This document shows, piece by piece, positions 1-60,100 of a DNA stretch of 64,000 bases. A program made the translations under genes and the position numbers. The notes under the pieces were generated by a model. The model searched no databases, was not told the origin of the DNA, and saw nothing but the letters and a program-made list of their open reading frames with translations. Source of the DNA: Asterochloris sp. CNOR1 (taxonomy: Eukaryota > Chlorophyta > Trebouxiophyceae > Trebouxiales > Trebouxiaceae); NCBI GenBank assembly GCA_963969365.1, contig OZ017753.1:2480001-2544000 (forward strand). Reading direction: 5' to 3'. Positions within the stretch are counted from its first letter, which is position 1. Each line of letters starts with the position of its first letter.

Positions 1-3000
1 GCTCTGTGCTGCTACAACTGTCTACTGCCACGCAACCAGAAGGAATATGCCACTCACTTGATAACCTGTGCAATCAACACATGCATACTGCAGGCTCCTG
101 ACAGGGGCACTTCTGTGCAGTGGGCTGCCGATTATCTCCGAGCTCCTTGAAGAAGCGCAAAGACAACAAAACCCTGTTTAGAGGAGCAGACTCACTTGGA
201 GATCTGGTGGTCCTGAAGGTTGGTCCATAACTTAAACTGGTACTTCCACTGGTCCACGCTCACACTGTTGGTTACCAGGCACAGCACGCTCTTCTTGATG
301 CGGGCAGCTGCGCTGATGCCCACCAGGGATTTGCCTGCCCCACAGGGCAGCACGATGATGCCTGCAGCAGGGCAGTACCGCATCTAGGACTGTGCAAGCA
401 ATGCAATGCATGTCTGACAGCGCCAGACTATTGCCAGCCCCGCAGGGCGGCACGGCCATGCCTGCAACAGGGCAGTGCTGAGTTCAGCACTGTAGCCAGA
501 AACATGTCTGTCAGCATCCAGGGCCTGCCCAGCCACAGGACAGCTTCATGATGCCTGGGCAAGGCAAGTGCTACCTATGGTGGCGAAGCAAGCAGTGCCT
601 GATCTGCAGTTGTGCAGTGTTCCATGGCAGAGACTTGAGCCAGTACAGCTCAGTGATGTGCCTCTTCAAGCCGGACTCGCCAGAACATGACTGACTTTTG
701 CAAAAGAACAGCCAATGCTGATGGCAGCCCAAGGGCATTGCAGACACTGAGCAGACACTGAGCGCTGTTTGAGCTCTACTCACCAGATCGTGCTCGCCCA
801 TTGCCAAACATCTTGCTAAGGCTCTTGGTCTGGTAGGGGCGGTGTGTGACGGTGGGCTTCAGATCTATGGCCAAGTTGGGGTTGACCGTGTCATTCCTGC
901 AGGCAAATGCAATGGCGTCTGTCCCTGGGTTGCAGCTTGGTAAGCTGCAGCCAGACTGCTTGGAAGGAGCGGCACATCACAGGCTTAGTGGAGCAAGGTA
1001 TCCAGAGCACTATCTCAGCAAGCCTGCATGCCCTGTACCTCGAGCAGCACTGCACACAGCTGCAACAGCCAGGTACAGAATGCTGCTGGCAGGGACACAA
1101 GACAGCAGGGCGGGGCCGGCCGCAACTCCCTGGGACACATTCCTCTGATTGCCCTGCGCTTACCAGTCCTGAACCACCTATTGATCACCACTTCTGACTT
1201 GGTAGTGTCATATTCCTCCAGCTTGGCACAACAATTGCTGCAGCCTCTACTTCATTCCAAGTTGATGGCCGCCTCAAGATCATGCTGATTGCTGTAGGCA
1301 AGCAGGGCAAGCCCCTGCGTGCCTGTCATCTCCAGCACAGAACATGAACAAATTCACCAGGCACAATCTGCTGCCAGCTTGTCCAGCGCCTGCATCTCTC
1401 TTGATAGAGGCACAAACCCAGCAGCAGCTGGTAACACGAGTGCGGACCTGAAGTCATACTCTTCCAGCATGGGGTAGTTGAGGCCGCCAGGGAGGCAGCG
1501 CTGCTTGACGTGCTCCACCTGGGACGCATCAATCTCAAAGCTATGCAGCTGGCGCTCTTCCTCTGTGGCAGCCACGATGGCGCGGGCAGCCTCCATGCCC
1601 GGGTCGGGGCGCACTCCGCCGGCTGCTGTTGCCCTGCCTGCAGGGCATGGTGGCTGCCTGTCAGGCTCAGCTGTGACTGATGTTACTGGTAAGAGTTTGT
1701 GTGCACGCTGCCTGCCGCAGCCCCGCCTGTAGGTGGGCTTGTTGGGCCTGTCAGGCTAGGGCACAGGCAACAGCGCTGGGAGCCCTCATGCCAGGGTTCG
1801 GCCACACGCCGTCTGCCCCTGCTGCCGTGAGAGCCTAGGTGCACGTCATGTGCATGAAGAGCAGCAGGAGCCTGGGTCTGGGTGCAACCTGCCAGCTATT
1901 TTTGGAAGTGTCCACAACCCGACTGCAGGCACTTCTCAGGCTGAAGAGCAGATGTGGGGGCCCGGCTGCACAGGCTACAGGAGGGTGCGTGCAGCAGCAG
2001 GATGAGCTGAGCCCTGCAAGATGAGACTTATTGAGTCCGGCTGGAGCCGGGAAACGCTGTGCATTGCCACTTCAGCATCCATGACATCACATGAATAGCT
2101 TGACAATCTGAACTATTGACCTGGTGGAGGGCTGCCTTGCATCTTCATCACGTGTTCCATTGCAGCCTCTATGTCAATCTCCCCCTCAGCAGCCGCAAGA
2201 AGCAGCCACCTCACAGACTTCCTATGCTCACACAGTATAGCCAAGTTTATCTGGCTATGCCTCCCTACCTGGCGGGGGAATGCCCTGCATCTCCATCTCA
2301 GCCTCCAGGGCAGCCTCCTCGTCAGCTGCCATCCCCTCATCGTCCATCAGGGCTGTGATCTCCTGGGCAGCCTGCTCCTTCAGCGCCTGGCTGACTGCAA
2401 ACTCGGCGTCCATGTCTGCATGCTGGATGCGCGCCCTGTTGATGACGTCGTCCTGCAGCACAGCCAGCTTGGATTTGGTGTGCCTTGCTGTGCATTGACA
2501 GCACCCCAGCGTCTATGCGAGTGAATGCTGCTTGCCCTGTTGATGACACTGTCTGTCTAAAAAGCAGCTTGAAGATCTGGTATGCCTTGCCTTGCATAGA
2601 CAGCAAGCTTGGCGGTCAGGTCTGAGCGCTGAATCTACTTCCATTGATGTGGACCGTGCTGCTCGGTCAGCAAGCATGACAACCCTTTCCTACTGCAAGT
2701 TGCAGACCCTGCTGTGCATCACACACAGTGCATAGTGAAGGGGTCTCCTGTTGGTGACAACAGGACAATGTGCGGTGTGCAGCACCTGCATGTCCTGTGT
2801 GCAGGGCAGTGTTGGTGACATAGGCCACTCATCTCACCCTGAGGAGCTGCGGCAGCACGGTGTGTTGGTCAAGCACCTCTGCTTGCTGTCGACACCATGC
2901 ACAGCCAAAATCAGTGAACACATGCTCAGTCTCACCCTGAGGAGCTCCCTCAGCACCTCAGGGTACCTGCTCTCAACGAAGAAGCTGTTGCGTTGCAGCA

Positions 3001-5741
3001 CCAGCTTGACCTTGCCATAGTTACTGGTACTTTTGCGGATGAAGTCCTTGATGTCCTTGGACAGCTGCACCTGCGTACACAAAGATGGCAGATCATGAGC
3101 AGGTGGCAGCAGAGGGTTGGATCACTGCACAAACAGGGCACGATGTGTACGACATATGGACTGCCAGGCTGGAAACCCACAGGTGGGGTCTACTATCACA
3201 CCCAGTAGGCCATTGCCACAAAGCTTTGCTTACATACTGAGCATCAGAGGCCTGCGATAACACTCCCTCAAGACAACTCAAACGGCACTGACTTGCACAA
3301 CTGCGGCAAGCAGAGTGCCTGCCTGCTTAGCCAGGACAGCTTTCCACACAGTGCGCTGCAGCGGGTCCAGCTGTGCTTTTGAGGCCGAAGGCACAGCTGC
3401 TGCAACAAAGCTTTAACAGTGAGCCTCACAGTTGAGCTGCAAAGTCAAAGCTTGCGGCAGAACAGGGCTTGGGCAGCAGCCTGGGCAGCTATCTCAAGGG
3501 TCTCCAGCACTTGTGCTGAGGCAATCTGGATACAGCCAGCCTTCAAATCTACTGACCTTGGACAGCACGCTGAGGTACTGGATGATTTTGTCGGTAGTGA
3601 GGCCCACAGACACAGCAGCGTACAGGCTGTGCGGGGTCAGCACATACTGATGCACCGTCTCAGGTCGGCAGACGGGCTCTGCAATCGCAATCATGAAGTC
3701 CTCAGCGTTCTTGTAGGCCGGGGAGAAGGTCTCCAGGAAGATGCGCCCATCTGGGCAGACCCAGATCGGCCTGCAGCATTGGCATATGCTCACAATGTCA
3801 CATTCTAATGCCATCTAGATTGTCCGGCCCAAATGTACACGAGACATCACATTTCAGAGCCCCAAGTTGGCCTGCAGCAAGAAGTGCACGGCCTTTGTCA
3901 GCAGCTGCCGGCCAATGAACGCAGTTCTCTATGCAGACTCAGACGGCCTGCACCATGAGATTAGCCCTGAGCTTATCAGCAGTAGCAGCTGCCTGCCACA
4001 AGACGAGGTGGGCAGCATGAAGGCCTGCCTTGTCCAAGCTTCATCATACCAGCGGTACCTGCAGCAGTCCACCTAGGATCTTGACTGAAGCATCCCCTGC
4101 GCCTACCCTTCCTGCCTGCCAACATCACAGACAGCCGCACCAGGCACCCACCCGGAGCACCAGGCCAATCCCAGGTGTTCTCGTTGTCCCCCTCAGCTGC
4201 AGCTGGGCGACATTGTGCATCGGCCTGCCTGTTGTTGTGGGCCAGCCAGAAGTTGCAGGCTCAGCCCACCTGTTCTGGTGGTCCCCCTTGAGCTGCAGCT
4301 TGGCAAAGTCTGCCTCATGCTCGTCCTGCGCCCCCAGGCGGAAGTATTCATCAGCATCTTCCCCCTCTTCCTCAAGGTCATCTGCTCCCTTGCCCACAGC
4401 CTCAGCTCCAATGGGCAGCTGCTGCAGACACAAAGACATAGGGGTTGGGAGAGACAGGTCAAGTGGGCAGCTGCTGCACTGCAGAAACTGGACACAAGTC
4501 AGAGGGACTTGCCCCAGGTGTTGTAATAAGGAGCTACTCATGTTGGCTTCAAGCTCTGCTCCAATGGGCAGCTGCTGGTGCCCAGACAAACCCCTGCCCT
4601 GCCGATGTGGCTGTAGATGCAGCTGCTGAGCTAGAGTGGGGCCCAGTGGTGAGCCGTGCTGTGGGTTGCTGCTTAACTACAATGCTTGTGACACCACTGA
4701 CGTCAGGAGCAGCTGGAGGCAGCGCACGCGTCAGTGCCCCGACGTGACGACGCCAGTGCAGGCTGCATTGTAGACTCAAGGCATCAGCCTGGCTTCAGCT
4801 GGGTCGGGGCAGGACTCCAGGTATTTTGCAGCGCAACCCTGATATGACACTTGCATTTCTGCAGGCTTATGTCTACCAGGGAGTGTCAGCATCTTCCATG
4901 CTGGGAGTGCTTCAGCAACTGTGTGAACCCGCCACCAGGTTGGACAGTCCTGCTTCAAGGGCTGCCCTGCAGCAGCCACACATTTGCCAGTTCTTCACTC
5001 CCTGGTGGTGTTCAAGATACAGGATCAGCCTATTCTGTGCTGAGAGCACTTCAACAATCGTCATGAACCCACCCCCAGCTTCAGGTCTGCCTCCATGGCG
5101 GCCCTGCTCCGCTTGCGCTCCCGCAGGCTCTTGCGCGCCTGGGCAGGCTCCGCCGCAGCCTTCTTGCCCTTGCCCTTCCCTTTGGCCCTGGCGGGCAGGC
5201 CCTCTGCAGGCACTGTACAGTCTGACAGGTGCCCTGTCTGTGGAGCCTTGCTGGTGCTGGTGCCAGTCAGGCAGCTTTCAGCAAAAGCAGTTGCAATTTT
5301 GACAGAAGCTGCACAGGGGGCGCTGGTGCACTACAAATTTTTGGAACAGGCTGACTGCCTCTCCGCTGGGATATGGCAGCAATGTCGGGGAGCTGCCTGG
5401 GACGGCCTCCTGAGTGAGCTGCTGATCGTCAGAGACAACAGTGCCGCCCACTGGGCACAGCTGACCTCCTGTGCGGGGAGCAACTTTCTGGTCGCTGCCT
5501 GGCTGGAAGTCGTCATCGTCATTGTCTGATATCACAACCTCTTCCGCTGTGCTTGCACCGCCAGGCGCAGCTGCAGCAATGATTGATGCAGGCACACCCT
5601 CGAGCTGTGCTTGAGGCAGGCGCACCTGCAGCACTAGAGGCTCAACAGTGGCCAAACACAGCACAGAGGTAGTTGCACCTGATGTGTCCTACCAGGGGCT
5701 GATTGCTACCCTGGTGTTCTCACCTTGAGCTTTGGAGCCAT
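1..5741 (-). CDS. XPB: XPB/ERCC3 DNA helicase of TFIIH (partial, C-terminus beyond left edge)
   Basis: ATP-dependent 3'-5' DNA translocase of TFIIH, needed for promoter opening and nucleotide excision repair. Start ATG at 5741 gives MAPKLK then a GTGAGA donor; the next exon begins VRLPQAQ and is acidic (SDNDDDDF), followed by a lysine-rich stretch near 5.1-5.2 kb. Clear exons on the minus strand: 4421-4270 (DEYFRLGAQ, ending DHQN), 3770-3557 ([29 protein letters not shown]), 3070-2936 ([20 protein letters not shown]), 2452-2269 (DDVINRARI then acidic), one ending at 1448 ([10 protein letters not shown]), 896-784 ([20 protein letters not shown]) and 361-196 with the Walker A P-loop [11 protein letters not shown] and QWKYQFKLW. 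Exon phases join correctly across the last three. The acidic insert after DDVINRARI differs from the animal and plant sequences I recall. The DEVH box and C-terminal helicase domain lie off the left edge. Several introns contain decayed copies of adjacent exon ends. Family assignment is firm; small exons between 4.5 and 5.1 kb are unsettled. Confidence 0.95.
319..580. repeat. Three tandem copies spanning the XPB P-loop exon acceptor
   Basis: The real exon start and acceptor (319-376) are followed on the plus strand by a copy at 419-479 and a weaker one at about 516-576, a period near 100 bp. Read on the minus strand, the second copy gives [11 protein letters not shown], so the P-loop lysine is replaced by asparagine. 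These copies sit in the intron upstream of the exon. Confidence 0.8.
1577..1828. repeat. Decayed copy of XPB exon segment
   Basis: Plus-strand sequence at 1577-1628 (exon encoding the stretch before EEERQLH) recurs imperfectly at 1774-1828 in the upstream intron, about 197 bp away. The shared core includes gcagcctccatgcc versus gagccctcatgcc and the following tcgg..cgc block. Confidence 0.55.
2119..2608. repeat. Copies of both ends of the [12 protein letters not shown] exon
   Basis: The exon 2452-2269 is flanked on both sides by decayed copies of its own ends. The 3' end with donor (plus strand from 2267) recurs from 2119, 148 bp away. The 5' end with acceptor and upstream intron (2429-2503) recurs at 2531-2608, about 101 bp away, sharing gccctgttgatgac and gtatgccttgc-like blocks. 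Confidence 0.7.
2829..2962. repeat. Copy of XPB exon 3' end with donor
   Basis: The donor-spanning string ctcaccctgaggagct occurs at 2931 (real exon end, donor at 2935) and again at 2833, 98 bp downstream in the gene's direction. Confidence 0.7.
4172..4315. repeat. Copy of XPB exon 3' end with donor (DHQN exon)
   Basis: The donor and end of the exon 4421-4270 (plus strand from 4267, cacctgttctggtgg) recur at about 4172 as caggtgttctcgttg followed by a matching ccccctcagctgcagct block, about 96 bp away within the downstream intron. Confidence 0.65.
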
Positions 5742-8060: not shown

Positions 8061-11000
8061 ATGAGCATGGGCTGCATTAGCTTCACCAGGGAGCAGGGGG
8101 ACCCCTGGCATCTGTTGATCTGCTCAGGCTCTCAAGTTCACGTGAGGACGCTGGAAGCCCCTGATCAGGTGCATCACACAGTGCTGGATGCATCAACGTT
8201 GCTCTATGTGGCAGTGGCAGAGCCTGCTGGCCGCATAGTTTACACTGCAGTTGGCGCTGTAGCAAAGGTGAGCACTGAATGACTTAATGGGATCTGTGCT
8301 GCTGTGTTAGCTCTATGCTTGCCAGCTTCTGAACCTTGTGGGACCCTTACCATTTGTGCAGTACTGCAGAGATACATGCTGGCATCTGGCGAGGTGGAAT
8401 GCCATCATTTGACGAACCTGGGCAGTCAGGTGCCCATCCGGGGTCTGACATTCAGCCCTGGCGGGTCAAGCATTGCCATTTCAGGAGATGACAGCTGCAT
8501 CAAGCTGCTGGCTGTTGATACCAAGAAGGTGACGGTCCTGATGAGGCCAGCTGCTGCCCAAACTTAGTGCACTGCAGTCCAGCTACACAGTACATCAGCC
8601 TGCCAGCATTGCAATTAATGCCATGGCAGAGCTGGTTGTAGCGAGCCCTCCGTTGTCTTCAGGGTCACTGTTCAGCCACGAGCAGCCAGCCTAAGCATAA
8701 GGCCACCCTTCAGAGGAGGCCCAACAGGCCAGCTGTGACTGCTGGCTGGCAGCCCCGGTCAGCTGCGGTTTGCTGCTGCAATCCTTGCAAGACCTGTACA
8801 CAGAGGGGTGGCCATCAGATAGTTGAAGAGGCATGGCATGCTCCTGCTGCACTTCTTTTCAGGGCTGCAGGTGTTGGAGTCACTGCGGAGCCCTTCATGC
8901 TGAACCTGCATGTCTGAAGAGGCACTGAACTGTGCCTTTGCAGGCGTTCAAGGGCCTGCAGACAGAGCCCTTTGTGCGGTCGGTGGCATGGGACCCAGAG
9001 GGGCAGTTCCTCGTGGCAGTGACGGCCTCTGGGCTGCTGCAAATTTGGGACCTGAACAATGGCTTCAAGATGGTGTTCACCAAGAAGCAGGCAGCCCCAA
9101 AGGTAGGTAGTTTTCTTGTTCCGATGATGGATGCATTGCACAAAAGCAAAGGGTGCTCTTCTGGTCCTGTTCCTGGTGGGCGCCAGGGGGAGACTGTTGT
9201 GATGTCCTGACCATCTGGGCAAGGCATGCTGAGCAGGTGCAAACCCTGGCGGGCCATATGCAGGTGGGACTCTCACAGGCATTGCGAGCCATGTGCAGAT
9301 GCCTGGGCTGCTTTTGTGGCACAGCCGAGCCTGTGCTTGTTGGCACAACAGCTGCGCCTCTGTGCATGTGCAGCATGCTGTGCCCACCTGGCAGGCCATG
9401 TGATGAACCGTGAGCTGCCTTGCAGCACAGCACAAGCAGGCAATGCTGACCCGACTAGCCCCTCATGCAGATGCCTGTCCTGTGTCCAGGTAGACCCTGA
9501 TGCTCTTGTCTGAGCCGCACCGCAGACAGAGGGAGACATGCCTACCTGAGCTGGCATGTGCTCTTGTTTAGGGATCCTACAGCAAGGCATGCTGACGGGC
9601 GCCAGATGGCTGTCCCTGCTAGGCACCAGACACAGACCAGTGAGCTGCCTTACAGACGCACCAAGCCAGATCTGTTTCCTGCCTCCGCTGCAGATCGACT
9701 ACACAGGCCCCAGCAGGAATGGCGCTGCCTGGCATCCTGATGGTGGCACCCTGCTGGCCCTGCCTGGCAAGCACAAGAATGTGGTGCTGTATGAGCGCCT
9801 GTCGTGGAAGGTGGCCTGCAGCCTGGACGATGAGCACACTGAAGACATCAACACCCTGGCATTTTCTCCAAATGGTGAGCTGTGGCTGGCTCTGTTGTAG
9901 CTGCGGTTGGGAGATGACACCATTGCGTCCTCAAGGTGAAGTCTCCCAGTCTGAGTCCCCCCATTGGTCTGTGTACCTAGCCGGATTGAATGGCAATGTC
10001 GTTATGGACAAAGGACTGCACTTGGTCTTTGGCAGCAGCCAGCGAGGTGCCACTGAGATTTGGCGATGGGGTTTGCTGGCAGACAATCCTGTTTCACAGG
10101 AACAGCAACGAGGGAAAGGTCCACAGGCAGAACATTGCCTTGCTGCAGCTGGCCATGACAGGCAGGTGCTCTTTGTCTGACTGGCATCAGCGGCAGTAGG
10201 CACAAGGCACCCCGTGACATGTTATGCACAAACTTACAAAGCATATGCTGCAGGGCTCTACCTGGCCAGTGCCAGCCGTGACAGGCAAGTGCTGATCTGG
10301 GACCTGGGGGACAAAACGGTTGTGGCTCGCCACACAGCTGAGGACAATGTCTCAGACCTGGCCTGGCACCCAGAAGCCAACAGCCTGGCATATGTCACTG
10401 AGGATGGCAAGGTGGCTGTCTGGGCTGGGGCTGTGCCCCAGCAACTGGCAGATCCCTTTGGGGCAGTGGATGCTGCCATGCGCCTCATGAGCAAGAGCCC
10501 TGGCAGCAAGGAGGTTGCGGGCGACAACCTAGGTGCGGTGATAGGTTGCAAGGTTGGGTACAGGGCAAGTGGACGTTGCTATGCGCCTGCAGAGCAAAGG
10601 CTGTGGCAGCAGATCTCACAGTGTGAAACAGAGATGCATGCTCTGTGAGACGATGCACCGTTCTGCAACGTGGCTTCGTCTGAAGCTTGGGCTGCTCCTT
10701 GCAACTTAAATACCCAGTTTGGCCTTGACGACGTACAGGTGTACAGTGAACATGCAGCAATACAGGCATGTGTCCTTCAATGCTGTGCGCAACAGGCAGG
10801 CCAGTGGCACCAATTCAAGACATTGCAGCACTTCCGCACCTGAGGCAGCAACCTAGGGCTCCAAGTCAGCTCACAAAACCGTCCTGAAGACCCAGGTACC
10901 CAGTAATGTTGCCTGTGAGACGTACAGACATCTGATGCAGGTGGCAGCGGCCCGCAGGGTGATGACATGCACGGCTTCATTGACAACGACATGGAGGATG

Positions 11001-38159: not shown

Positions 38160-38765
38160 GTGAGCTTGGCTTGCCTGGCATTGAAAATGCTGCCGTGACG
38201 TTGCTGTGATGCAGCTGGGTGGTGTAGCTGCTTGCTTTGAATCTGTTGCATCTCTGAGCTTCAACATCTGGCTAACACAGCTACATCCTGCGCATTTAGC
38301 AGTGAGGTTGGCTTGCCTAGCTACCAACTCACTGCCAAGGCATTGCTGTGGTGCGGCCGGGTGATCCAGCTGCTAGCTCTGAAAGTTCATATGATCCCTT
38401 CCATTCCTAAGCTTTGGCACCTGGCCAACACAGCTACCTCCTGTGCAGTTAACTTGAGTGTGCTGCAGTCAGAGCTGCTGGAACCTCATGGTATGATGCA
38501 GCTGGCTGAGGCAGCTGCTGGCACTGCAGATAACATCGCCTGCCTGGCCAGGACATCCAGCTTGGCTGGCTCAGTTCATCAAAGCTCTTGGAGTCAGAAT
38601 CTCAATCAATTGAGGGCAAACAGCCACCAGAAGCTTGTACTCTACACCGCAGACTGAGACTTATGATCCACAATCTGGGCAATGATTTCCAGGCCTTCAG
38701 ATCCATCAAGCATTCTGGCCAATCAGGCCTCCCCTTCCATGCAGTGCATGGCCCCCATTGCCCTC
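38160..38765. other. Unresolved 3' region of the DJ-1 gene
   Basis: The region should contain the last intron and last exon of DJ-1. It contains a related pair, ctggctaacacagctacatcctg near 38268 and a similar string near 38421, about 154 bp apart, again suggesting local tandem duplication. No terminal exon with proper phase was identified. Confidence 0.4.
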
Positions 38766-48600: not shown

Positions 48601-51600
48601 CCCCAGGGACTGTGCACACTGCTGGAGGATTTGGGCCTTGTCTGGGCGGCCTTGCGGGAAGTGTGTGCCTTGGCTGTGCAGGCAAGGAGCGGGGGACCGC
48701 TGCAGGGTGGGGGGCACTGTCTGGGCGGCACTGTAGGTAGAGTGCGGTTACATGTGTGCATTCATGGAGAGCAAGGCTGTTGCAGGGTGTGGGGCATGAG
48801 TTGGGTGGCCTGCAGGTGGCCTTTGCCTTGAGCATGCACAAGTAAGGGAGAGGGGCTGCTGCAGGGTTGCTGAGTTTATCTGCATGACTCTGCAGGCATG
48901 CAAACTGCTCTACAACACACAGATACAAATTCGATGAGGCAGTGCAAGTTCACTACAGACTGAAGCGCTGCGAGTCCCCTGCATGGCCAACAGTTCAGCA
49001 GGCAGCCTGTATTTCCAAATAAGGAGCAGATTTGTCGAGCAAGCTGCAACAAAGAAAGCCAGCACAAAGACCTGCAGGGGAGTCTTTGAACGAGCCCCTG
49101 ACAAGCTTGAGACGGTGCACAATGTCATCAGCACTGGAGCGGTCGTACCACACCAGAGTGCACCGGCACCCCGGGTGGATCTGTTGCAGCAAGGCATGCA
49201 GCTGAGGCTGCCTTTCTGTTGCAGAGCATCTCATGCTGGCATGCTGGCGACCAGGGGTACAGATACACACCAGCCGCAGACTGCTTGGGTGAAGCAGCAA
49301 CTTACTTATCATGCTCGTTGCGGGCAGCCTCTGTGGCCTTGGTCCCTACGCGCACGAACTTCTCCACCCAATCCACCTTCTCTGCAGCAAACATGACAGT
49401 CACTGCTGTGCATACCTTTCAATACTGTATAGGTGCTGCATCATGTGAACTTGTCAGCAGCTGTGGATGGATGCATGCAGGTTCCCACACCATCTCATGC
49501 TGCCCTTGTTCTGTCCCCCCACCACAGATTAGGTGTGCATGCTAGCTTCTTTCACTCTTCAGCTGGTTATGGTGTCAAAGACTCCTGCCTTTATTAACGT
49601 CAGCTGTGGCTGTGATAATCAAATCAGCAGCTGCTGCAATGAGTAAGCAGTCAAGATGGCGGCACAAGCTGCACCCACCTGCCATATCGTTGAAGGCTGG
49701 GCCACGCACCTCCCCTCCCGAGAAGGGGGCGCCCATGGCAAAGCGCTCCACAAATCTAGCCCTCACCTGCAGCCTCCATACGGCACTGTGTCCTGCTTTG
49801 CCTTGCCTTCAAGGGCTGCTGCTGCGGGCAGGGCATGCATCCCAATGGGCAGGCACATATGCCTGCCCTGCTTTTGCAGCTGCCTCAGCATCTTTGGAAT
49901 CTGCAAAGGCTGTATTGCAGTACGAGCAGGCACAGATGGAACACGAAGGTGGCCTGTTGTTGGCACTCTGATGCAGGAGTGTTGTGCACAGGCAAGATCA
50001 CAAAGGGAAGTGAGCAGGAAGCTGACGGCATGCAGGCCAGCAGCACCTTGCGGGGCTCCTTGGATGTATGGTTCTGGAGGGCTGCAGGCGATAAGGGGTG
50101 GACCTTGAGGAAGGCGCCTACTGCCCCCAGGAAGCCCTCATGGCGTAGGAACATGGCAGACATCTCGCCCTGCATGACAGCACGGCCAGGCCAGCTGCAG
50201 CCAGGGTGCGCAGGCACGGTGCTGCAGCACTGCTCCAGCAGCAGAAACCCTCATCGTGCAGCGAGGCCAGCCAGATTGTGCAGCCAGGGGTCACGAGCTC
50301 TGTGCTGCAGCGCAGCCCACGCAGCAGACGCAGGTCAGCCGGAGTAGCTGTGAGGCAGAACCTATCATCAGCACGTGCCAGCTTAGAAGTGTCTGGATGC
50401 TGAGCCAGGAGCTCCACAGCAGACATTCCATGTATGCAACAAGAACCTGACCGTAGCAGTCAGCAATCAGGTGACAAACCAGATTGCAGCTTTGAAGCCC
50501 AGGTGTCACATCATCACTGCAATACCTTGGACCAGAATTTGATGGCAAAGGAAATGGTTTCCATCGTGTAGGGGTGCCCTCGAATGAAGAAGCCGCCAAA
50601 GAAGACGCGCTGCAGGCCATAGCGCTTGGCATTCAGGTAGGCCAGGTGCCCAATGTTGTAGGACACCATCCTGCAGGAGCCAATGGTGTCAGGGGGCGTC
50701 ACATCTCTGGACAACATTCACTGAATCGTCTTGCCTTGCAGCTCCATCCATTAAACCTCTCAAAGCATGTGCCAGGCCACCCCAAGGCAGCCTTTCTTGT
50801 TGTCTCAGTGCTCAACAACCACCACACCACCCTGCCCTGCCCCAACCTGCTTTGCCCCTGCACCACCCACAGTGCCAAAGGCTGCAGTGCCAAGTTAAGC
50901 CAGACTATTCAATGGCGCATTGCGCTGGCTTGCACAGCGCCAGCTTGAGGCACTGCGGGGTTCCCCCTGCCGGCATGGGTGCACTCCTGCACAGGGCGAG
51001 CACTTCCCTTCCCCACCTCACTCGACCCATCCCGGCCGCACACCTAGCCCTGCCTGCACAGGCCCAGACCTCCTGGAAAGCAACAAACCCTACCGCAACC
51101 CTGCCCACCTACACAGCAACCGGTGAGGCACCACATCTTTCAGGTCTGCTCCTGCTTGAGTTCAAGGCAGCAATTCTCTCAGGTGGCAGGAAGCCCCTGC
51201 TGACTCCACAGGATCAGCGCAAGGCCCTCTTCAACATGCATGACCCGCTTATTAAGTCTCCTGGCCCCACCATAGTATTCAGCCAAGAGATCCCACCTGC
51301 ACAGTGCCAGCGCAAGGTCTGCAGGGTCCAGATCCTCCAGGTCTTTGCCCTCAGCCACTACCTTGCCGAAGCTGCTGGCAATGGTAGTGGCAGACAGGCC
51401 AATGTTGGAGTAGTCGCGGTCCTTGCCATATATGTCACCCACCAGCATGTCTACCTGCAGGCATGGAGCGCCGTGGTGGATGAGTGCAGATACAGACGCC
51501 TTGATATAAATGTTGGTACCACATGTCAATCTGCAGGCATGCTGGCCTGACGTTCAGTGTCTGCAGACATGGAAGCCTTGCTGCACCTCTTGCTCAACAA

Positions 51601-54155
51601 GGTTGCCCGCAAGCTTGTCCATCTGCAAGGTGCCAGGGGTGCCTCTGCTTTGTGTGCAGCCTCACAGCACCTGATGTGTCAATTGCATGAGTCTGCTGGG
51701 CATGCTGCAGCACATGCTGCAAGCTTTGGCAAACCTACAGACGCTGCCCAGCCGTGGACACATCCAGCACACCTTAGCATTGTCCCCGCGCATGCTGAGC
51801 TCCAGCATCTCGTCAAACCCACGACACCGCGTCAGCAGGCGGCACAGGCCCCAGAAGGTGCCGCCCCCCAGGCTGCTGCCGCTGACGCGCTCGTACTGAC
51901 CGTCCCCAGCCACCTGAAGCATGCTGACGCCAGAGCCAATGTTGACCAGAAGGTAGGGGAACAGGTCGGAAGCCGCTGCAGAGGGAAAGGCCTGTGTCAG
52001 CACAGCAGGTGCAGCCGCAAGCAGGGATACGGGATGGCCCCCGACTGGGGGCAGGGCACCTGAGTTCATGTCAGCCATGCAAAGCCGTGTACAGTCAGCA
52101 GGTTGAAAGGGCGCCCTGCAAAGCACAATCAGCAGCATCAATCACCACCGGTGGTGGCTTGAGGGTCACTGAGCGTTGCAGTCAACCTGGCTGCCATTGA
52201 GAAGCTGGACAAGAGCTGCAGCACATTCCTGGGCTCTGCAGCAGCCCCTGGCAGAGAATGCTCGCCGTCACCACCGGCTGCACTGACATCAGTGGTCAAT
52301 CAGCACAATCAGTGCCTGAGAAGTGCGGTCTGCTGTTAGCCTGGCAGCCATCTCAATCCAGGGGGGTGAATCGCTGCAGGGTGGTCAGTTGCACAGCAGC
52401 CCCTGCCACTCACCATTGGCTGCAATGAAGTTGGTGGTATTGTTGATGTAAGTAAAGGCCTCGTGGCGGATGGCCTTGAGCAGGAAGTTGCAGCCCCCTA
52501 CCAAGCAGTCCATCTCATCCTCCTTCTCCAGGAGCAGGCCCAGCTTTTGCTGCAGCCAGAGACACATCACGCGACTTCAGCAGGAACGTACAGTGACACT
52601 GCTGCCTGCTGTCTATTTCACCTTCCTTCCCCAACAGCACGCTCAGCTTTTGCTGCAGCCAGAGAGACATCAGATAGAAGGTAGGGACACCAAGGCAGCT
52701 TGCTTCAGCTTCTGGGGGGTAGGAGCTTCACGTCTTCCATCTTCTCCAGCAGGCCCACAGGGCGAGAAAATGATGTGTGGCTGTCTGACAGATTCAGCAG
52801 CAGACTGAGCCATCTGATGGCTGCATGCTGAACACTGCGTCCAGCATCAGGCCCGCCGAATTCCTAGGGTAGTTGGTCGGGCAGGCTGTGCCAGCATCTT
52901 GAGCAGGCTGTGGCCACTGCTGCAGGTGCACTGGGAGATGCTGCCCCAGGGAGCAGCCTGCAGTGATGAGAGCAGTGCGAAGCACCCCAGCACCAAGCTC
53001 TGCTGCTGAGGTCGCATCATTTACCTCAAAGAGCTCAGCATATTTGAAGGCGCCGCCGCCTGTGGCCTTGACTCGTGTGGGCCGTGGAGAGGCATCGGAG
53101 TGCGGGGCCCAGTGATGGTGCAGCCCCTTGGCCTGGATGAAGTCGATGCACTGCTGTACCTGTGACGTCTCAAACTTGACAAAGTGCAGCTTCCCTGCAC
53201 AGGCAAGGCAGCTCTCTGTCGGCAGCCATCACATGCACAAACACATGACAGAGCAACACTCCCTGTACTGCTGCATCTAGGACGCCTTGCACTTGACATT
53301 GTGCAGCATCTGCCACAGGGGCCGCCAGCCTCCTTCTTGGATGCTCCAGTGCTCTTCATGTGTGTGAGCTCAGCCTGGCCCCATTCTGCAAACATTCCTC
53401 AGGCTGCTGCCCTTCCCCTGTGAGACCGCTACAAGCATGCAAGCGCCAAGAGCCCTCCCAGAGCACCAAGCTTGCCTGCAATGATCCTAATATCGCCTCA
53501 AGGGGCACAATGGTCATTGTTGCCGGTCTACAAAGGATACCCAGCTTGCTGTCCCCTCCTCAAGGCAGACACGTAACTGCCAAGGAGCATCACAGAACAT
53601 AGTGCTTGCCTCCCGTGCTCCTGGTCTGGCTGGGCTGTGCATGGTGGCCATTGTCGCCATTCTGCACAGGCTCCTCTGGCGAGAAGTAGATCAGTTTGAT
53701 CAGAGAGCCACCAATGTCCAGGGCAATGTGGCTGATGTAGTTGGCGTCCTGGTGGGGCAGCACAATGCTGGGGGCGTCCCTGGATCTAGTGCCTGTGGGC
53801 AGAAGAAGGCTTATATGAGCTTTACATGCTGCCTTGGACAGTGCTGTCTTGACAAAGCAATGACAGTGTACCCATATGGGCACAAGCTGGCTGGGCTGTG
53901 CTTTGGTGGGAGCTCAGCATAAGCACCCAATGGATTACACCTGTGCTCACCGTCCCCTGCTTGGCTAATATACGCTGCCTGCAGGTCCAAGGAGCTGCCT
54001 GCTGAATGCCTTTCATCTAGAAGAGGGTCCTCAGCTGCCTGCTCTGGTTGGTGATCTCCTTTGTCATCCAGGTTGGCCATTGTCTCCCCTGCTGGTATTC
54101 CAAATGGACAGTAGGGGGTGCCTGACTCGTCCAGTATGATGCTACCTCCCATCAT
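42640..54155 (-). CDS. PANK2: Pantothenate kinase type II fused to DUF89 phosphatase (plant PANK2 type)
   Basis: Catalyses the first step of CoA synthesis; the fused DUF89 domain of plant and animal homologues dephosphorylates damaged 4'-phosphopantetheine. Start ATG 54155 gives [12 protein letters not shown]. Kinase exons, right to left: 53.7 kb ([18 protein letters not shown], nucleotide loop), 53.1 kb ([12 protein letters not shown]), 52.5 kb ([16 protein letters not shown]), 51.9 kb ([28 protein letters not shown]), 51.4 kb ([20 protein letters not shown]), 50.6 kb ([20 protein letters not shown]), 50.1 kb ([15 protein letters not shown]), 49.7 kb and 49.35 kb ([20 protein letters not shown]). 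Linker: 48.4 kb ([17 protein letters not shown]) and 47.9 kb ([11 protein letters not shown]). DUF89: 47.35 kb ([13 protein letters not shown]), 46.4 kb ([19 protein letters not shown]), 45.7 kb ([15 protein letters not shown]), 45.4 kb ([19 protein letters not shown]), 44.9 kb ([17 protein letters not shown]), 43.0 kb ([17 protein letters not shown]) and 42.7 kb ([12 protein letters not shown]), ending TGA 42640. Metal-binding Asp/Asn of DUF89 (VDN, GMGR) are intact. It is the largest gene here because of intron expansion. Confidence 0.94.
48455..48822. repeat. Four copies of one PANK2 acceptor plus exon start
   Basis: The exon starting at 48522 (minus) begins [11 protein letters not shown] after CTGCAG. 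Copies lie upstream at 48592-48665, 48700-48736 and 48779-48815. On the minus strand the third begins CTACAG and encodes [11 protein letters not shown]; the fourth begins CTGCAG and encodes [11 protein letters not shown]. All keep a plausible acceptor. Confidence 0.85.
52520..52760. repeat. Copies of the 5' end of a PANK2 exon
   Basis: cagcttttgctgcagccagaga occurs, within a longer match, at 52541-52562 and again about 94 bp later at 52634-52670. A third partial copy near 52732-52762 matches the cttctccaggagcaggccca part. All lie in or at the intron upstream of the exon at 52.42-52.56 kb. Confidence 0.75.
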
Positions 54156-54298: not shown

Positions 54299-56085
54299 AT
54301 GGCAGACCTGGCAAACGCTTCTGACATCAATCTGCCTGTTCAACTAGGGGTAGGCCTACACATTGCAGATATCTTTGAGCTGTTTCAAGGCAGCTGCTGT
54401 GGCTCCTGGGCTATTACCATCTTGTCATGGGCGTGCTGTTTTCTGTTGAAGCAATGCTGCAGGTGTGCTCTGCTCTGCTGAGGCTCCTGGTCCCTGATGC
54501 AGACCACCATTATGGCAGCTGCCTTTGATGGCGGTGTGGTGATGGGTGCAGACAGCAGGACATCCACAGGGAGCTACGTGGCCAACAGGACGACAGACAA
54601 GATCACGCCCTTGGCTGAGAGGATCTATATCTGCAGGTCAGCTGCACTGCACAGGCCACTCTGGCCCAGGACTGGTGCTGTGCCTTGCACTCCAGCGCAG
54701 CAGCAACTGAAGCGTCTTCATGCCAGGGCTGAGTCTTGCTGTTTTGTTCTTATCTACACGCTGATGGTGCTGCACATGCAATATAAGTCAGAGCCCCCGG
54801 TGGCCAGCGTGTTGAGATGCTCAAGGGTCCCCACAGAGGTGTCCAAAGCGTGCTGCTACAAGTCTCTCTCCAGAGATTGACTCAGGGATACCACCTCCAA
54901 AGTGCCACTCCAGCGTATGTTTATGGCTGCGCCTTGCTGCTCAGCCCCTGACAGTGCAGCACATGCTGCAGGTCACTGCTGATTAGCCTATCAGGCCCCT
55001 TTGCAGCGGTGCACATGTTGCTTGTCGACATGTGCAGCAGTCACGCTGATGCTGACAGCTTGCTTTCAGTGCCCTCTGACAACGATGCCCCTGCTTCAGG
55101 TCAGGGTCAGCAGCCGACACGCAGAACCTCTCGGCCTACGTGCAGTGGTTCCTGCAGCAGCACAGCCTGGAGCTGGGGGACGAGGCCAATGTCAAGACAG
55201 CTGCGATGCTGGCAAAGCAGATGGCATACCAGAATAAAGTGAGCAGGACCACCTTCCTGCAGATGCTGCCACACAAGCTGTGGGCCAAGCAGCACAGAGG
55301 AGTGGCTCAGCTGGCGATGTTTGACTTCAGTCAGCATCAGGGTGTTGCTTGAAGTGTTAGCTGAGTGCCGTGCTTGCTGTAAAGCTGGATGCTGGGCCTG
55401 ACTGCCTGCTTCCGCTGCCCTGCAGAACATGTTGCAAGCAGGGCTGATTGTGGCAGGCTGGGACAAGCATGAGGGTGGAGCGGTGTATGCAATCCCCCTG
55501 GGCGGCACCCTCATCAAAGTGCCCTTCACAATTGGTGAGCTGCTAGTCTACACAGTGAATAAGATCAGGCATCCCTGTTACTTGCCTGAATCTGCAGGCC
55601 TGCTGATGGGTGGGGACTCTGCCTGCACCCCTCAAGATACCCCTCGGAGTGATTCACGCACCCAAGGCCTGCAGCCTGCCAGAAACTCATTGATCTGCTG
55701 TTGCCATGCAGTGATGGCAAGCGTGCATAGAACACCTCCCTCGGCTGTGCAGGCGGCTCTGGTTCGGCATACATCATGGGGCTGTGTGACAAGCTGTGGC
55801 GGGCCAACATGACGGAGCAGGAGTGCCAAGCCTTTGTGCACAAGGCTGTTACCCACGCCATGGCAAGAGATGGCTCGTCTGGTGTGTTTTGCCTCATGCT
55901 GCAAATCTGCATGTCCCAGCATCACAGTCAATAGGACAGGATTACATCTCATACCTGCAGGGGGCTGTGTAAGGACGGTGACCATCACAGAGCAAGGAGT
56001 CAAACGTACATTTACACCAAACAATCAGCTGCCACCCTATCATGGAGAGCTCAAGCCCCCAGCACCGACTGCTGTGCTCGCCTGA
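54299..56085 (+). CDS. PBA1: 20S proteasome subunit beta-1 (PBA1/PSMB6), 228 aa
   Basis: Catalytic caspase-like subunit of the 20S core. Six exons close in frame: 54299-54349, 54503-54636, 55100-55238, 55426-55534, 55753-55881, 55961-56085. Exon 1 encodes a 17-residue propeptide [17 protein letters not shown], and exon 2 begins exactly at [19 protein letters not shown], so autocatalytic cleavage between Gly and Thr coincides with the exon junction. Thr1, Asp17 (GADSR) and the lysine of DKITPL (Lys33 region) are present. Other motifs: [56 protein letters not shown] and a C-terminus ending PPAPTAVLA. The first intron interrupts propeptide and mature chain, so mis-splicing would remove the nucleophile context. 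The closest relatives I recall are plant PBA1 sequences, with a similarly short propeptide. Confidence 0.96.
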
Positions 56086-56605: not shown

Positions 56606-56782
56606 AAGGGAGCTATGCATGCAGAGGACGGCCTCAGCACAAGTTGGACTGCCAGAAGACACGATGGGCACCACTGTGCCACAGACACAGTGCCAGAAAA
56701 GGCCAAGCAGCAGCTGCAACTCCCTTTCTTGTCCAGCAAGCTCAGGGCAGCAATGTGCCAATCAGCTTCTGCTGCATCAGAA

Positions 56783-57172
56783 GGCAAGCGAGCGCTCTCA
56801 TTGCTGTGCTTGAGCAGCTCTACACCTGTTTCCAGCCCTTACTAGCAGCCTGCTTGGTCCTTTTACAAGCCTTCACCATGACGGCACATTGTTTCTGGCC
56901 ATGCAAGCGCTCTTCTTGCTGGGTCTATGCAGTTTTCCCACCCCAGTCTCTGCACTTGACAGGAGCCCTCATGTGCCCTGTCAGGCTCGCCCCGTCCCCC
57001 ACCTTGAGGGCTCGCCTGGGGGGCCACGTACATTGCTGTGCTTGACGCTCATTGCTGTCCGAGACCCTTGACAACAGCCCTCTCGTGCCAATCTCACCCT
57101 CACCTTGAGGGCGTACAGCTGGAATGTGCGCATGCAAGCACTCTCGTTGCTGTACTTGAGTAGATCCAGCTT
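56783..57172. repeat. Copies of the coiled-coil exon segment LLKYSNESACM
   Basis: The exon segment at 57135-57172 (plus strand aagcactctcgttgctg then tacttgag) recurs at 56783-56822 (gagcgctctcattgctg then tgcttgag), giving LLKHSNESAR on the minus strand. Fragments lie at about 56898-56915 and 57030-57060. Confidence 0.65.
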
Positions 57173-60100
57173 CTCCAGGAGGCAGATGCGCCGCCGTAGC
57201 TCTTGATTTTCCACCTTCAAGTTGCCATTGCGCTCCTTCAGATACGCCATCAGCTGTTTCTGCTGGGTGCGCTCCTCTTCAACCTACAGGGTGGCTCAGA
57301 ATGGTGCTTGCATGTCAGATTGGCTGCTGACCCTGTGCCTCCCTTTCCCACCTGATGCAGGCTCTTCTGGGCCTTGACAACAAGATCTCTTGGCAGAGCT
57401 TGTGTCAGGCTCCCATCCAGAACTGGTGAGCGGTCAGTTCGCTGTGTGCAACTGTATCACCTGTTACAGCCTCAGCAAGGGTGAAATAACTCGGCGGCCT
57501 CGCCTTGCCCTGCCCCACCAGTGCCTTTCTCACATGCACTGGAGCTGTCACCTGGTGCAGCAGCTTCTGCGCCTTGACGGCCTCAGCCGCACATGGTTCC
57601 CACAACTCTGCCGTCATGCACACGGGGAACAGATTCCCTGGTGCAGACCCTAGCCCCTTGCATAATCTGCTCACCTGGCGCAAGCTCTTCTGCGCCTTGG
57701 CCGCCTTAACAACATTCTCCTTGGAGACTGTGCGCGACAGGTCAGCCACCCTTGCCACGCGCATGTAATCATGGCGCAGCTCGGCCAGCTGCTCTGCTAG
57801 GTTGGTCTTGACGCACACCAGCTTGCTGCGCGAATCAGTGAGCTCCCGCACGACCTCCATCAGGTTGCTGCACTCTTGTTGCTGCATGTCAGGCAGCCGC
57901 AGCATTAGACAGCACATCAGCTTGCTGCACAAGTTGATAAGCTTGCACGTGACAGCCAGGTTGCTGCACTCGTCTTGGGTGCATGGCAACGGGGCATGGG
58001 CACCAGCCAGCTGGCTGCTGCACAACACAACCTGCAGGGAGAGCTGCCAATGCTGCCCAAGGCACACGAGCGTTGCGAAGCGCGCCACACCCCCAAACCC
58101 CTTCACCTCCCGCATCCTGGTTGTGCCTTGTAATAGTCGGTCCTTGACAAAGAAAGTTCCTTACCTTGCGCAATAGTGCCTCAGCAACAGCGGTGCACTT
58201 CATGTCCTTCGAGATGCTTTCCCGCTCCAGACGCTCTGCAGGCGACAGGCACTCTGCACTCTCAGGCAGGGCTGCGCCTAAGCACATTGTGGCAGGAAAC
58301 AGGCAGCAGGACAATGCCAACAAAGGTTCCAACAACAACCAACAACCGCCAGGACCTTGGCAGGGAGTACAGCAGAACACGGCAGTGGGGCTGAGGCATG
58401 TTGCTTTGCTATCCCATTGCAGTCCTGAGAGTGCCACGAGGTAAAGCCTGTACACCCAGCAGAGTATGCGCTCTGGGGAGGGGCTGTGCGATGAGACTAG
58501 TAGGGTACGCCTTCCGCTCACCAATGGCATTCAGCAGTGCCTGCTCATGGCCCTGCTCCTGCAGCTCAATGGCCGCATCTGGCTCACAGGAAGAGGTGTG
58601 AGTGGACACTGCCGTCAGAGGCCACTGCTCATTGCCCATCGCGGGGTCTGAACCATCTGCGCTGCGCATGGGAGAGGTGCTGATTTGCCTATGCGCACAA
58701 CTTGCTGTGGCCACTCCACCGCTGCAACACAACTGCGGGGGCGCCTGAAACGCTGCCTGGGTTGCTGGGCCGCTGCTCTGCCGGCGCAACTGAGAGGTCC
58801 ACCCCTGCACAGCAATGTGGGGGTCAGTGAACTTCTGAGAAGGGTGACCAGCACCAGCAACCCAAGAGAGAAGGCCGCACTCAGTTGCAGAAGAGCGAGA
58901 GGATTGGCCTCTGCAGCCACAAGCAGGACAACATGCATGGTCTGCAAGCCACTTAGGAATAACATGTAGCAGCAGTAGGCCCCGAGAGTGCTGACCTGCT
59001 GGGGTTGACCTGCTTGCTGGGCTGGATCCACCTCAACCAGCTCCACCTCCAAAGACTCTGGGGAGGAAGCAGGGCCACTGCTGCCCAGGACAGCCTGTGC
59101 AACTGCGTCCATGGGGCTCTGCATCAGGTGCCTAACAGATGTGAGGCAGGAATGAGGCAGCATATGCATTCAAGAGGCTACAACAACATGGCATACAGGC
59201 ATGGCGGCAGGGGAGGCTTGCAAAGGGCTAGATGCCTCGCTAGCCTTGCACTGCAGTGAGATCATTTGCACAGGCCAGCAGGGTCATGCCCAAGCCAACA
59301 GGAGCCGGCAGAAGCAGATGGCAGTCCCGTGACTACAGCGATGGCAGTGTACAGGTTGGCAGAGGCAACTGTGAGGAGGCAGCCATCAGATGCAGCTGGC
59401 AGGGCTACAGGCCCCAGGCAGCTCACCAGGCAGGGCTGCGGCGGTGTGCCTGAGGCAAGGGCCTCGAAGAAAGCAGCCTTCCTTTGCACAGCTGAGGTTG
59501 GCGACAGCACTGTGCCACCGGCATCAAAGCTCGGCCCTGGAGGGACCTTCGGCTTGATTGAGCCCTTGCAGCGATCCTGCCTGACCAGCAGAGCCGGCCC
59601 AGGGGGGCAGGCCTGCTCTGGCTTATCACATGCTGCATGCACAGCAGCCTGGGTGCTATCGATGATGTCCTCAGGTTGGCAGCGGCTGACTGAACCTGAC
59701 TCCTGCCTGATTGCAGGACAGCAGTGTTCAGCTGCATGTGTCTGCCTGCAGGAACAGATCCCAGCGCAGCTGCAGGCCACGGTGCTCAACTCGATCGCGC
59801 AGCCGCTGGGTATTGCCTTGGCCCCGTTGCGCCCTGGCATGGCAGCACGCCCGCTCGGAGGGGACGCAGCAGGTGACCCGCTTTCATTGGCCTCCCTGCT
59901 TTCGCTGGCCTCCCCGCTGTGCTCTGCCACGCTGCTGAGTCGCGCCTGCCGCTGACGGCCTGCTGCAGGCGAACACCTCGCACTGTGACCCTGGTTAGCA
60001 CCAACGCCTGATGCTGTCTGAATCCATGGAGGACGTGCTGCCTGCTGTGCAATGCCTGGCTGGCCAGGCGAGCTGGGCCTGGAGCACGGTGGCGTGGGCA

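What the first reader, a model, noticed from the sequence alone, without database searches (positions are those of the whole stretch)
319..57990. Introns filled with decayed tandem copies of exon-intron junctions ('ghost exons')
Seen directly: in XPB, CTF4, the AIR-like gene, DAK, the SPICE1-like gene, PANK2 and the coiled-coil gene, one to three imperfect copies of an exon end together with its own donor or acceptor lie 74-200 bp away inside the adjoining intron. Copies of 5' ends lie upstream and copies of 3' ends lie downstream, always the same orientation. Most periods are near 100-150 bp. Known biology: introns can arise or lengthen by tandem duplication (AGGT duplication models), but a genome where most introns appear to grow this way would be unusual. 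Inference: an ongoing local duplication process feeds introns with spare splice sites, so they may serve as a reservoir of alternative exons.
Basis: partly seen in the sequence, partly recalled or inferred. Interest (0 to 1): 0.88.

Follow-up and report, generated by a model that had tools for sequence, protein, structure and literature searches.

The report
Decayed junction duplicates in algal introns
In this lichen alga many introns carry worn-out head-to-tail copies of the neighbouring exon's end with its splice site, which suggests that its introns grew by small local DNA duplications, mostly long ago rather than now.

Summary
In 300 kb of it (window, 18 scattered 10-kb samples, 10 stretches with TCP1 chaperonin genes), 57 of 322 acceptor and 62 of 322 donor junctions match their own adjoining intron better than the 99th percentile of matches to other genes' introns (about 3 expected each). 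Reverse complements, exon middles and wrong exon ends stay at or near chance overall. The best copies are head-to-tail, mostly 75-200 bp away, and neutrally decayed. Junctions with a copy lie in introns about 100 bp longer. So intron lengthening by local tandem duplication is supported. Three extensions are not. Copies are detected in 109 of 397 introns, not most (55% of those of 400 bp or more). Copies of 90% identity or more are about ten times too rare for a constant, ongoing rate. Nothing suggests usable spare exons. Junction targeting is not required by the counts, since exon constraint makes junction copies easier to see, though low counts at gene ends leave it open. Short tandem duplication by repair is known in plants; the extent and apparent pulse are new. 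No comparison genome was available.

The parts
431..491 (-). ghost of acceptor junction 331-391 (helicase/XPB-like gene), lag 100
   Evidence: score 165, 77% id; no second match reported in the genome
1773..1829 (-). ghost of acceptor-side exon 1580-1636, lag 193
   Evidence: score 125, 72% id
2119..2176 (-). ghost of donor junction 2267-2324, lag 148
   Evidence: score 130, 72% id
2497..2584 (-). ghost of acceptor junction 2393-2482, lag 103
   Evidence: score 100, 66% id
2828..2858 (-). ghost of donor junction 2925-2956, lag 98
   Evidence: score 109, 88% id
3928..3956 (-). ghost of acceptor junction 3750-3779, lag 178
   Evidence: score 89, 83% id
4161..4221 (-). ghost of donor junction 4256-4316, lag 95
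   Evidence: score 138, 76% id
4543..4577 (-). ghost of acceptor junction 4390-4424, lag 153
   Evidence: score 115, 83% id
4905..4970 (-). ghost of donor junction 5044-5107, lag 138
   Evidence: score 125, 72% id
10127..10170 (+). ghost of acceptor junction 10250-10293 (CTF4/WDHD1 gene), lag 123
   Evidence: score 80, 68% id
10577..10611 (+). ghost of donor-side exon end 10474-10508, lag 103
   Evidence: score 95, 77% id; also
11486..11512 (+). weak ghost of acceptor-side exon 11592-11618, lag 106
   Evidence: score 75
11324..11378 (+). ghost of donor junction 11069-11124, lag 254
   Evidence: score 89, 68% id
13716..13771 (+). ghost of exon 3' end and following bases 13594-13649 (CTF4 exon missed by the HMM, present in P0001), lag 122
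   Evidence: 79% id over 56 bp; exon 13548-13643 shown by tblastn with P0001
15705..15756 (+). ghost of donor junction 15626-15682, lag 76
   Evidence: score 108, 70% id
17470..17495 (+). weak ghost of donor junction 17422-17446, lag 48
   Evidence: score 79
20542..20679 (+). head-to-tail copy of 20426-20557 (read here as the end of a zinc-knuckle, AIR-like exon with its donor), lag 116
   Evidence: 81% id over 47 bp; 73% id over the longer stretch, no match elsewhere reported; the HMM did not predict this gene, so the junction is inference
24505..24557 (-). ghost of donor junction 24642-24694 (beside the Dak1 gene), lag 137
   Evidence: score 108, 74% id;
26477..26524 (-). ghost of acceptor junction 26339-26384 (Dak1 gene), lag 139
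   Evidence: score 93
27306..27338 (-). weak ghost of acceptor junction 26950-26982, lag 356
   Evidence: score 75
29257..29293 (+). ghost of acceptor junction 29358-29397, lag 102
   Evidence: score 81
30393..30441 (+). ghost of donor junction 30313-30363, lag 79
   Evidence: score 85
34948..35013 (-). ghost of acceptor junction 34843-34907, lag 106
   Evidence: score 89
35440..35507 (-). ghost of donor junction 35540-35606, lag 100
   Evidence: score 129, 71% id
38302..38525 (+). two further copies of the segment that starts at 38160 (DJ-1/PfpI gene exon end with GTGAGC), lags 142 and 145
   Evidence: no match elsewhere reported; that 38160 is the real donor is inference, the HMM put a stop at 38198
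43870..43921 (-). ghost of donor junction 44049-44105 (ARMT1-like gene), lag 182
   Evidence: score 136, 77% id
44412..44448 (-). weak ghost of acceptor junction 44314-44350, lag 98
   Evidence: score 75
48601..48655 (-). ghost of acceptor junction 48471-48526, lag 130
   Evidence: score 149, 79% id
51499..51541 (-). ghost of acceptor junction 51421-51465 (pantothenate kinase exon), lag 77
   Evidence: score 93; exon is Fumble
52268..52296 (-). weak ghost of donor junction 52410-52438, lag 142
   Evidence: score 75
52608..52672 (-). best ghost in the window: acceptor junction 52505-52569 (pantothenate kinase), lag 103
   Evidence: score 215, 83% id over 65 bp; similarity runs on to cover 97% of the lag; no match elsewhere reported
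53264..53319 (-). ghost of acceptor junction 53147-53203 (pantothenate kinase), lag 116
   Evidence: score 119, 74% id; sequence read
53446..53535 (-). ghost of donor junction 53580-53669, lag 134
   Evidence: score 110, 62% id
54997..55069 (+). weak ghost of acceptor junction 55072-55145 (proteasome subunit gene), lag 76
   Evidence: score 79, 62% id
56784..56817 (-). ghost of donor-side exon 57130-57163, lag 346
   Evidence: score 110, 82% id
   Evidence: score 110, 81% id
57348..57383 (-). third copy of the same segment, 200 bp further on
   Evidence: D2 family, 72% id
57921..57988 (-). ghost of acceptor junction 57822-57891, lag 98
   Evidence: score 115, 69% id

Best explanation
Non-coding DNA of this alga went through many small head-to-tail tandem duplications, mostly 75-200 bp long. 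Where the duplicated unit crossed a splice junction, splicing went on at the junction joined to the intact exon, because use of the other copy would add intron sequence to the mRNA. The spare exon end with its splice site was left inside the intron, the intron grew by one unit, and the spare copy decayed neutrally. This explains why 3'-end copies lie downstream and 5'-end copies upstream. Junction copies stand out because the exon copy is held by selection, so the pair diverges more slowly than a pair lying wholly in non-coding DNA. Shown: excess, orientation, head-to-tail structure in the best copies, neutral decay, longer introns. Inferred: a repair origin of the kind described in rice (paired nicks, patch repair), from unit size and layout alone. 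Also inferred: activity was much higher in the past (bulk of the datable ghosts at about 0.1-0.3 substitutions per site) than recently.
For: Own-intron excess at both junction types in all three data sets, highest in the TCP1 stretches (19/69 and 18/69 above null q99). Near-equal at donors and acceptors; reverse complement 0.9% and 1.2%; exon middles 0 of 98 and wrong ends 2.3% and 1.6% above q99. Flank similarity continues beyond the anchors (mean extension score 18.2 vs 11.0 for swapped flanks; 19% above null q95), and seven of the eight best hits (score >=165) cover 0.87-1.01 of the lag; the eighth gives 1.51, an over-extension. One unit is head-to-tail in a genome search. Identity by codon position 0.781/0.780/0.707, ordinary transition-rich spectrum; 14 stops in 1352 ghost codons and none in the exon codons opposite, and 119 of 136 gaps not a multiple of 3. 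With equal 170-bp targets, 96 junctions with a copy lie in introns of median 490 bp, 383 without in introns of 389 (p = 7e-5). Detection model: interior/junction ratio predicted 0.33, observed about 0.24 after taking off 1% chance (12 of 181 vs 58 of 239). Rice tandem duplications enriched at 50-200 bp and attributed to patch repair (PMC7971508, passages).
Against: Total aligned length correlates only weakly with lag (r = 0.21 for lags below 260) and the median of 81 hits covers half the lag, so head-to-tail structure is firm only for the best-preserved copies. Predicted gene ends show fewer copies than splice junctions (stop ends 2 of 25, start ends 4 of 43 above q99, versus 58 of 239 donor junctions), which hints at some link with splicing or at gene ends being less tolerant; those ends are poorly predicted. 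The lack of young copies means no fresh breakpoint could be read, so the repair mechanism is untested. Three of the four genome searches for units did not report even the local copy, so diverged copies elsewhere are not excluded. No second eukaryote was available as a yardstick.
Confidence: 0.78

Rival explanations
1. Junction-targeted process: duplication is coupled to splicing or transcription (for example R-loops or RNA-templated repair at exon ends), so that junction copies arise more often than other copies.
For: Junction copies are more frequent than interior intron copies (58 of 239 vs 12 of 181 above q99 with 170-bp targets) and than copies of predicted gene ends (6 of 68).
Against: Slower divergence of exon-containing pairs alone predicts an interior/junction ratio of 0.33, near the observed 0.24. 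With 300-bp targets interiors reach 11 of 95. Donor and acceptor rates are nearly equal. Local direct pairs also occur in stretches labelled intergenic (58 of 195 pairs).
Confidence: 0.13
2. Copies are born diverged, or diverge very fast while still similar (error-prone copying or repeat-induced mutation), so that no young copies are seen although the process is ongoing.
For: Near absence of copies at 90% identity or more.
Against: Third codon positions have diverged more than first and second (0.293 vs 0.22), as expected if the real exon has also had time to change; the spectrum is ordinary, not C-to-T skewed.
Confidence: 0.08
3. Functional duplicated exons (mutually exclusive or alternative exons) kept by selection.
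For: Most ghosts that span the junction keep GT/GC or AG at about the right place (41 of 52 donors, 35 of 52 acceptors, with a small positional tolerance); stops are fewer than a simple expectation (14 vs 23-25).
Against: One exon end is copied, not the other (wrong-end tests near chance); 119 of 136 gaps break the frame; similarity at ghost splice sites is little above its surroundings; the stop shortfall is expected in part because some differences arose on the exon side.
Confidence: 0.04
4. Artefact: local base composition, low complexity, wrong gene models or dispersed repeats.
For: Gene models are from a home-made HMM; in CTF4, 13 of 21 tblastn pieces of P0001 are covered 80% or more by predicted exons and 8 are not. 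In the window alone the reverse-complement control is above chance (5.7% and 4.3% of 70). The unit searches in the genome have limited sensitivity.
Against: Wrong-end and exon-middle controls against the same introns are near chance, reverse complement at chance overall; the excess is present without any annotation and in TCP1 stretches whose exons are confirmed by Pfam.
Confidence: 0.02

Closest known systems
Short tandem duplications by patch repair (rice, 50-200 bp; PMC7971508, passages read; Vaughn & Bennetzen 2014 and Schiml 2016 seen as its references only)
   Same: Local, direct, head-to-tail; similar unit size range, falling off above about 125-200 bp in rice
   Different: In rice the events are recent insertions between varieties; here nearly all are old, and breakpoints cannot be read
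Intron gain by tandem genomic duplication (AGGT model; PMC3443670, passages read)
   Same: Tandem duplication of exonic sequence near splice sites
   Different: Predicts that the upstream exon end resembles the intron's own 3' end; tested and at chance. Here existing introns lengthen
Tandem exon duplication / internal gene duplication (Gao & Lynch 2009, recalled, and seen as a reference in PMC3443670; not held)
   Same: Copies of exon sequence beside the original
   Different: Whole exons or gene parts, often functional (recalled); here one exon end with its splice site, non-functional by sequence
Introners / introner-like elements (recalled; one abstract start seen)
   Same: Repeated sequences linked to introns
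   Different: Introners are dispersed families; for four units tested no match outside the locus was reported, with limited sensitivity
Tandem repeats near intron ends in Chlamydomonas and Volvox (PMC3887541, passages read)
   Same: Tandem repeats in green-algal introns, denser near exon junctions
   Different: That study covers units of 1-50 bp; here mostly two or three diverged copies of 75-200 bp that include exon sequence

Membership tests
Short tandem duplication by patch repair | Local direct copies, no matching excess of inverted ones | tested here: met
Short tandem duplication by patch repair | Copies adjoin head-to-tail, duplicated length equals lag | tested here: inconclusive
   met for seven of the eight best-preserved copies and one genome-search unit; median of 81 hits covers half the lag
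Short tandem duplication by patch repair | Unit size about 50-200 bp | tested here: met
   lag median 136, quartiles 103-194, 5-95% 70-331 among 125 hits; short lags (below about 50) are hard to detect by the design
Short tandem duplication by patch repair | Breakpoint signature of paired nicks (little or no microhomology) | not testable with these tools
   copies too old; only 3 pairs of >=90% identity outside L015 at lag 60-400
AGGT tandem-duplication intron gain | Upstream exon end resembles intron 3' end and downstream exon start resembles intron 5' end | tested here: not met
   1 of 217 and 0 of 220 with score >=80; fractions above q99 0.5% and 1.8%
Introner elements | Same sequence in many introns | tested here: not met
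   four units searched in the whole genome, no match outside the locus reported; diverged copies could be missed
Functional tandem exon duplication | Whole exon with both splice sites and open frame | tested here: not met
   wrong-end tests near chance; frame-breaking gaps
Functional tandem exon duplication | Copy is spliced into mRNA | not testable with these tools
   no RNA data

The most novel reading that the evidence does not exclude
Introns of this lineage grew in a pulse. During a limited past period a transient mutational state made tandem duplications of about 100 bp across the genome at ten or more times the later rate, lengthened a large part of all introns and left fossil junctions in them, and then largely stopped.
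Probability: 0.35. Interest if true: 0.78.

Novelty: new variant of a known kind. Interest (0 to 1): 0.6.

Why it matters
In six Chlamydomonas relatives introns are conspicuously long (median 198-343 bp) and lack the 60-110 bp peak of other compact genomes; the authors write that the advantage of this is unknown and that whatever drives it is likely ancient (PMC8226300, passages read). The introns here are of like length (median 315 bp). Fossil junctions give a readable record of how single introns lengthened, with the exon as a built-in reference for dating. That makes the question testable genome by genome: how much intron is duplication, when it was added, and whether rates come in pulses. 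It also warns gene finders, since an intron may hold copies of its own splice sites.

Tried and rejected
First merge of TCP1 loci assumed the wrong orientation and gave conflicts, redone without conflicts. The HMM check used 48 of the 51 Pfam matches that lie inside the fetched stretches, because I left three out by oversight; one search checks all 51. The extension part used too lenient a scoring and gave ratios above 1; it is discarded and replaced. Same-lag flank match rates were too blunt because of indels. AGGT intron creation, introners, whole-exon duplication and RIP-like decay were considered and rejected as told above. ABC, AAA and mitochondrial carrier searches gave exon places but no DNA, and were not used. 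Rfam and tRNA scans of the window were empty. Two papers were not held. Literature searches for this pattern; none of the titles and abstract starts listed (capped lists) describes it in an alga, and most subscription papers are not in that library.

Rows dropped: low-complexity pairs; exons shorter than the probe needs (40-60 bp) and introns too short for probe and target (364 of 397 introns are 120 bp or longer); junction hits with lag outside 60-300 in the age test (112 of 125 kept); junction hits below score 90 or with a spacer below 15 (81 of 125 kept); one window hit (13743-13805) left out of the parts list because one search shows a missed exon in that 'intron'.


Full report
WHAT WAS CHECKED. 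The window is G000:C8:2480001-2544000 of a 56.4-Mb genome in 21 contigs, 18 of them 2.0-4.5 Mb long. A CTF4/WDHD1 protein predicted from the window finds a JGI Asterochloris model (P0001) as best hit at E = 0. Of the tblastn pieces of P0001 on the plus strand, the 21 above my 80% filter match the window at 87-100% amino-acid identity. The published A. glomerata genome is 56 Mb with 9 introns per gene, gene length 4240 and mRNA length 1400 (PMC6652019, passages). So the window is from Asterochloris glomerata or a near relative (inference). The term 'tandem' has 0 occurrences in the main text of that paper.

WITHOUT GENE MODELS. Every lag was scanned for ungapped direct matches, and inverted matches were scanned at the same distances. 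With score >=80 the window has 32 direct pairs at lags 75-150 and no inverted ones; at lags 1000-10,000 it has 11 direct pairs in all. Eighteen 10-kb samples from 18 contigs give 50 direct and no inverted pairs at lags 75-150. At longer distances the samples do hold some inverted pairs (for example 6 at 250-300); sample L006 holds 39 of the direct pairs below lag 400 and 9 inverted ones and is a repeat-rich exception. Direct pairs are found in every sample (1 to 39 each below lag 400), and the pattern is directional.

GENE MODELS. No annotation was at hand, so a small hidden Markov gene finder was trained on the sequence itself. It learned GT(G/A)AG donors (8% GC in the first training) and CTGCAG acceptors. 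Of the 67 Pfam TCP1 matches in the genome, 51 lie inside the fetched stretches; all 51 are covered by half or more on the right strand, 47 by 80% or more, mean 91%. Spliced window proteins give continuous domains: Fumble 97-312 of 334, Dak1 94-268 of 313, DJ-1 2-148 of 165, ARMT1-like 13-219 of 311, Helicase_C_3 1-123 of 125; a sixth protein has no family. In CTF4 the finder is weaker: 13 of 21 pieces are covered at 80% or more; two of the eight others lie inside the opposite-strand helicase gene and look like an error of the JGI model.

For each junction, 60 exon plus 30 intron bases were aligned, with gaps, to up to 300 bases of the same intron, and to the same part of introns of other genes. 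Above the null 99th percentile are 57 of 322 acceptors and 62 of 322 donors; above the 99.9th, 42 and 43. Reverse complements reach 0.9% and 1.2%. Window alone: 18 and 16 of 70 (reverse complement 5.7% and 4.3%, above chance); scattered samples: 22 and 33 of 183 (0% and 1.6%); TCP1 stretches: 19 and 18 of 69 (0% and 0%). In an ungapped version, exon middles (0 of 98 above q99), the wrong exon end (2.3% and 1.6%) and the AGGT-model comparisons (0.5% and 1.8%) are at or near chance. Because these controls use the same introns, local composition does not explain the excess.

ANATOMY. Of 125 junction hits (score >=75; 35 window, 56 samples, 34 TCP1 stretches), 97 cross the junction by more than 3 bases on both sides; lag median 136, 5-95% range 70-331; identity median 0.74. 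Lags are not confined to multiples of three (35/38/52 by remainder 0/1/2). Copies occur in 109 of 397 introns; 45 acceptor only, 48 donor only, 16 both. In the pantothenate kinase gene the segment TGATGTGTCTCTGGCTGCAG|CAAAAGCTGG lies in a copy 103 bp upstream with its acceptor. Beyond the anchor, flanks still resemble each other (18.2 vs 11.0). The eight best hits cover 0.98, 0.97, 1.01, 1.51, 0.98, 0.87, 0.91 and 0.96 of the lag, where 1.51 is an over-extension. Over all 81 hits used the median is 0.5 and the correlation of aligned length with lag (below 260) is 0.21, so the older copies do not prove the point by themselves.

LOCALITY. Four units were searched in the whole genome; none has a reported match outside its own locus. 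Only the zinc-knuckle unit returned its own neighbouring copy (116 bp on, 73% identity); for the other three even the local copy was not reported, so the search excludes close dispersed copies but not diverged ones.

INTRON LENGTH. Copies are found in 2% of introns of 120-200 bp, 14% of 200-300, 26% of 300-400 and 55% of those of 400-600 and of 600 or more. Longer introns offer more target, so a fixed 170-bp target was also used: 96 junctions with a copy lie in introns of median 490 bp, 383 without in introns of 389 bp (p = 7e-5). The difference is close to one unit. Detected local duplicates make up 9.0% of intron bases, against 0.1% for matches to another intron; that null counts the probe side only, so a like-for-like figure would be up to about twice as large.

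DECAY. Identity of exon and ghost by codon position is 0.781, 0.780 and 0.707; changes are transition-rich with no C-to-T skew. Of 1352 aligned ghost codons 14 are stops (23-25 expected if all changes fell on the ghost; part fell on the exon), and 119 of 136 gaps are not multiples of three. Ghost splice-site columns are only slightly better kept than neighbours. This fits neutral decay with the exon changing mainly at third positions.

AGE. Copies planted in a simulation are found with certainty at low divergence. A constant rate would give about 21 of 112 copies at 90% identity or more; 2 are seen. Without annotation, over 300 kb and lags 60-400, pairs of >=30 bp number 6 at >=0.90 (3 of them in sample L015), 7 at 0.85-0.90, 41 at 0.80-0.85, 54 at 0.75-0.80 and 44 at 0.70-0.75. 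In a steady process numbers should not rise with age, so either the rate has fallen or copies pass quickly through the early range (inference). The bulk of datable ghosts fits about 0.1-0.3 substitutions per site on the ghost; the fit also puts weight on an older class that is barely detectable and not resolved.

IS IT AIMED AT JUNCTIONS? With 170-bp targets 58 of 239 donor junctions but 12 of 181 intron interiors exceed q99; with 300-bp targets interiors reach 11 of 95, and intergenic probes 5 of 83. A model in which all kinds arise at one rate, but interior pairs diverge on both sides, predicts an interior/junction ratio of 0.33 against about 0.24 observed for 170-bp targets, so aiming is not needed. 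Against this, stop ends (2 of 25) and start ends (4 of 43) are low; these ends are poorly predicted, and the point stays open.

WHAT IT WORKS LIKE. Size and head-to-tail layout resemble tandem duplications described in rice as the commonest insertions, enriched at 50-200 bp and attributed to repair of adjacent nicks (PMC7971508, passages). Whether the same repair acted here is inference. It does not fit AGGT intron creation, introners or functional exon duplication (membership table).

VERDICT. The main gap is a yardstick: no other eukaryotic genome could be run, so 'unusual' is not shown.

Noticed in passing
window 33064-33184: Period-39 tandem repeats, mostly within predicted coding exons; most likely a protein repeat and unrelated to the junction copies.
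   Followed up: no
window 3915-4376 versus P0001: The JGI Asterochloris CTF4 model begins with pieces that lie antisense inside the helicase gene; probably a fused or wrong public gene model.
   Followed up: partly
window 43339-53700: A pantothenate kinase (Fumble) part and an ARMT1-like phosphatase part follow each other on one strand, as in the fused plant PANK2 (fusion recalled); my HMM split them.
   Followed up: partly
L015:4454-7108: High-identity direct repeats (lags 58, 67, 213, 226; 93-97%) in a GC-poorer sample (0.52); they include the only pair with score 250 or more at lag 60-400.
   Followed up: no
L006: Repeat-rich sample with 39 direct and 9 inverted short-range pairs.
   Followed up: no
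window and L001-L018: About 8% of predicted introns begin with GC instead of GT in the first training.
   Followed up: no
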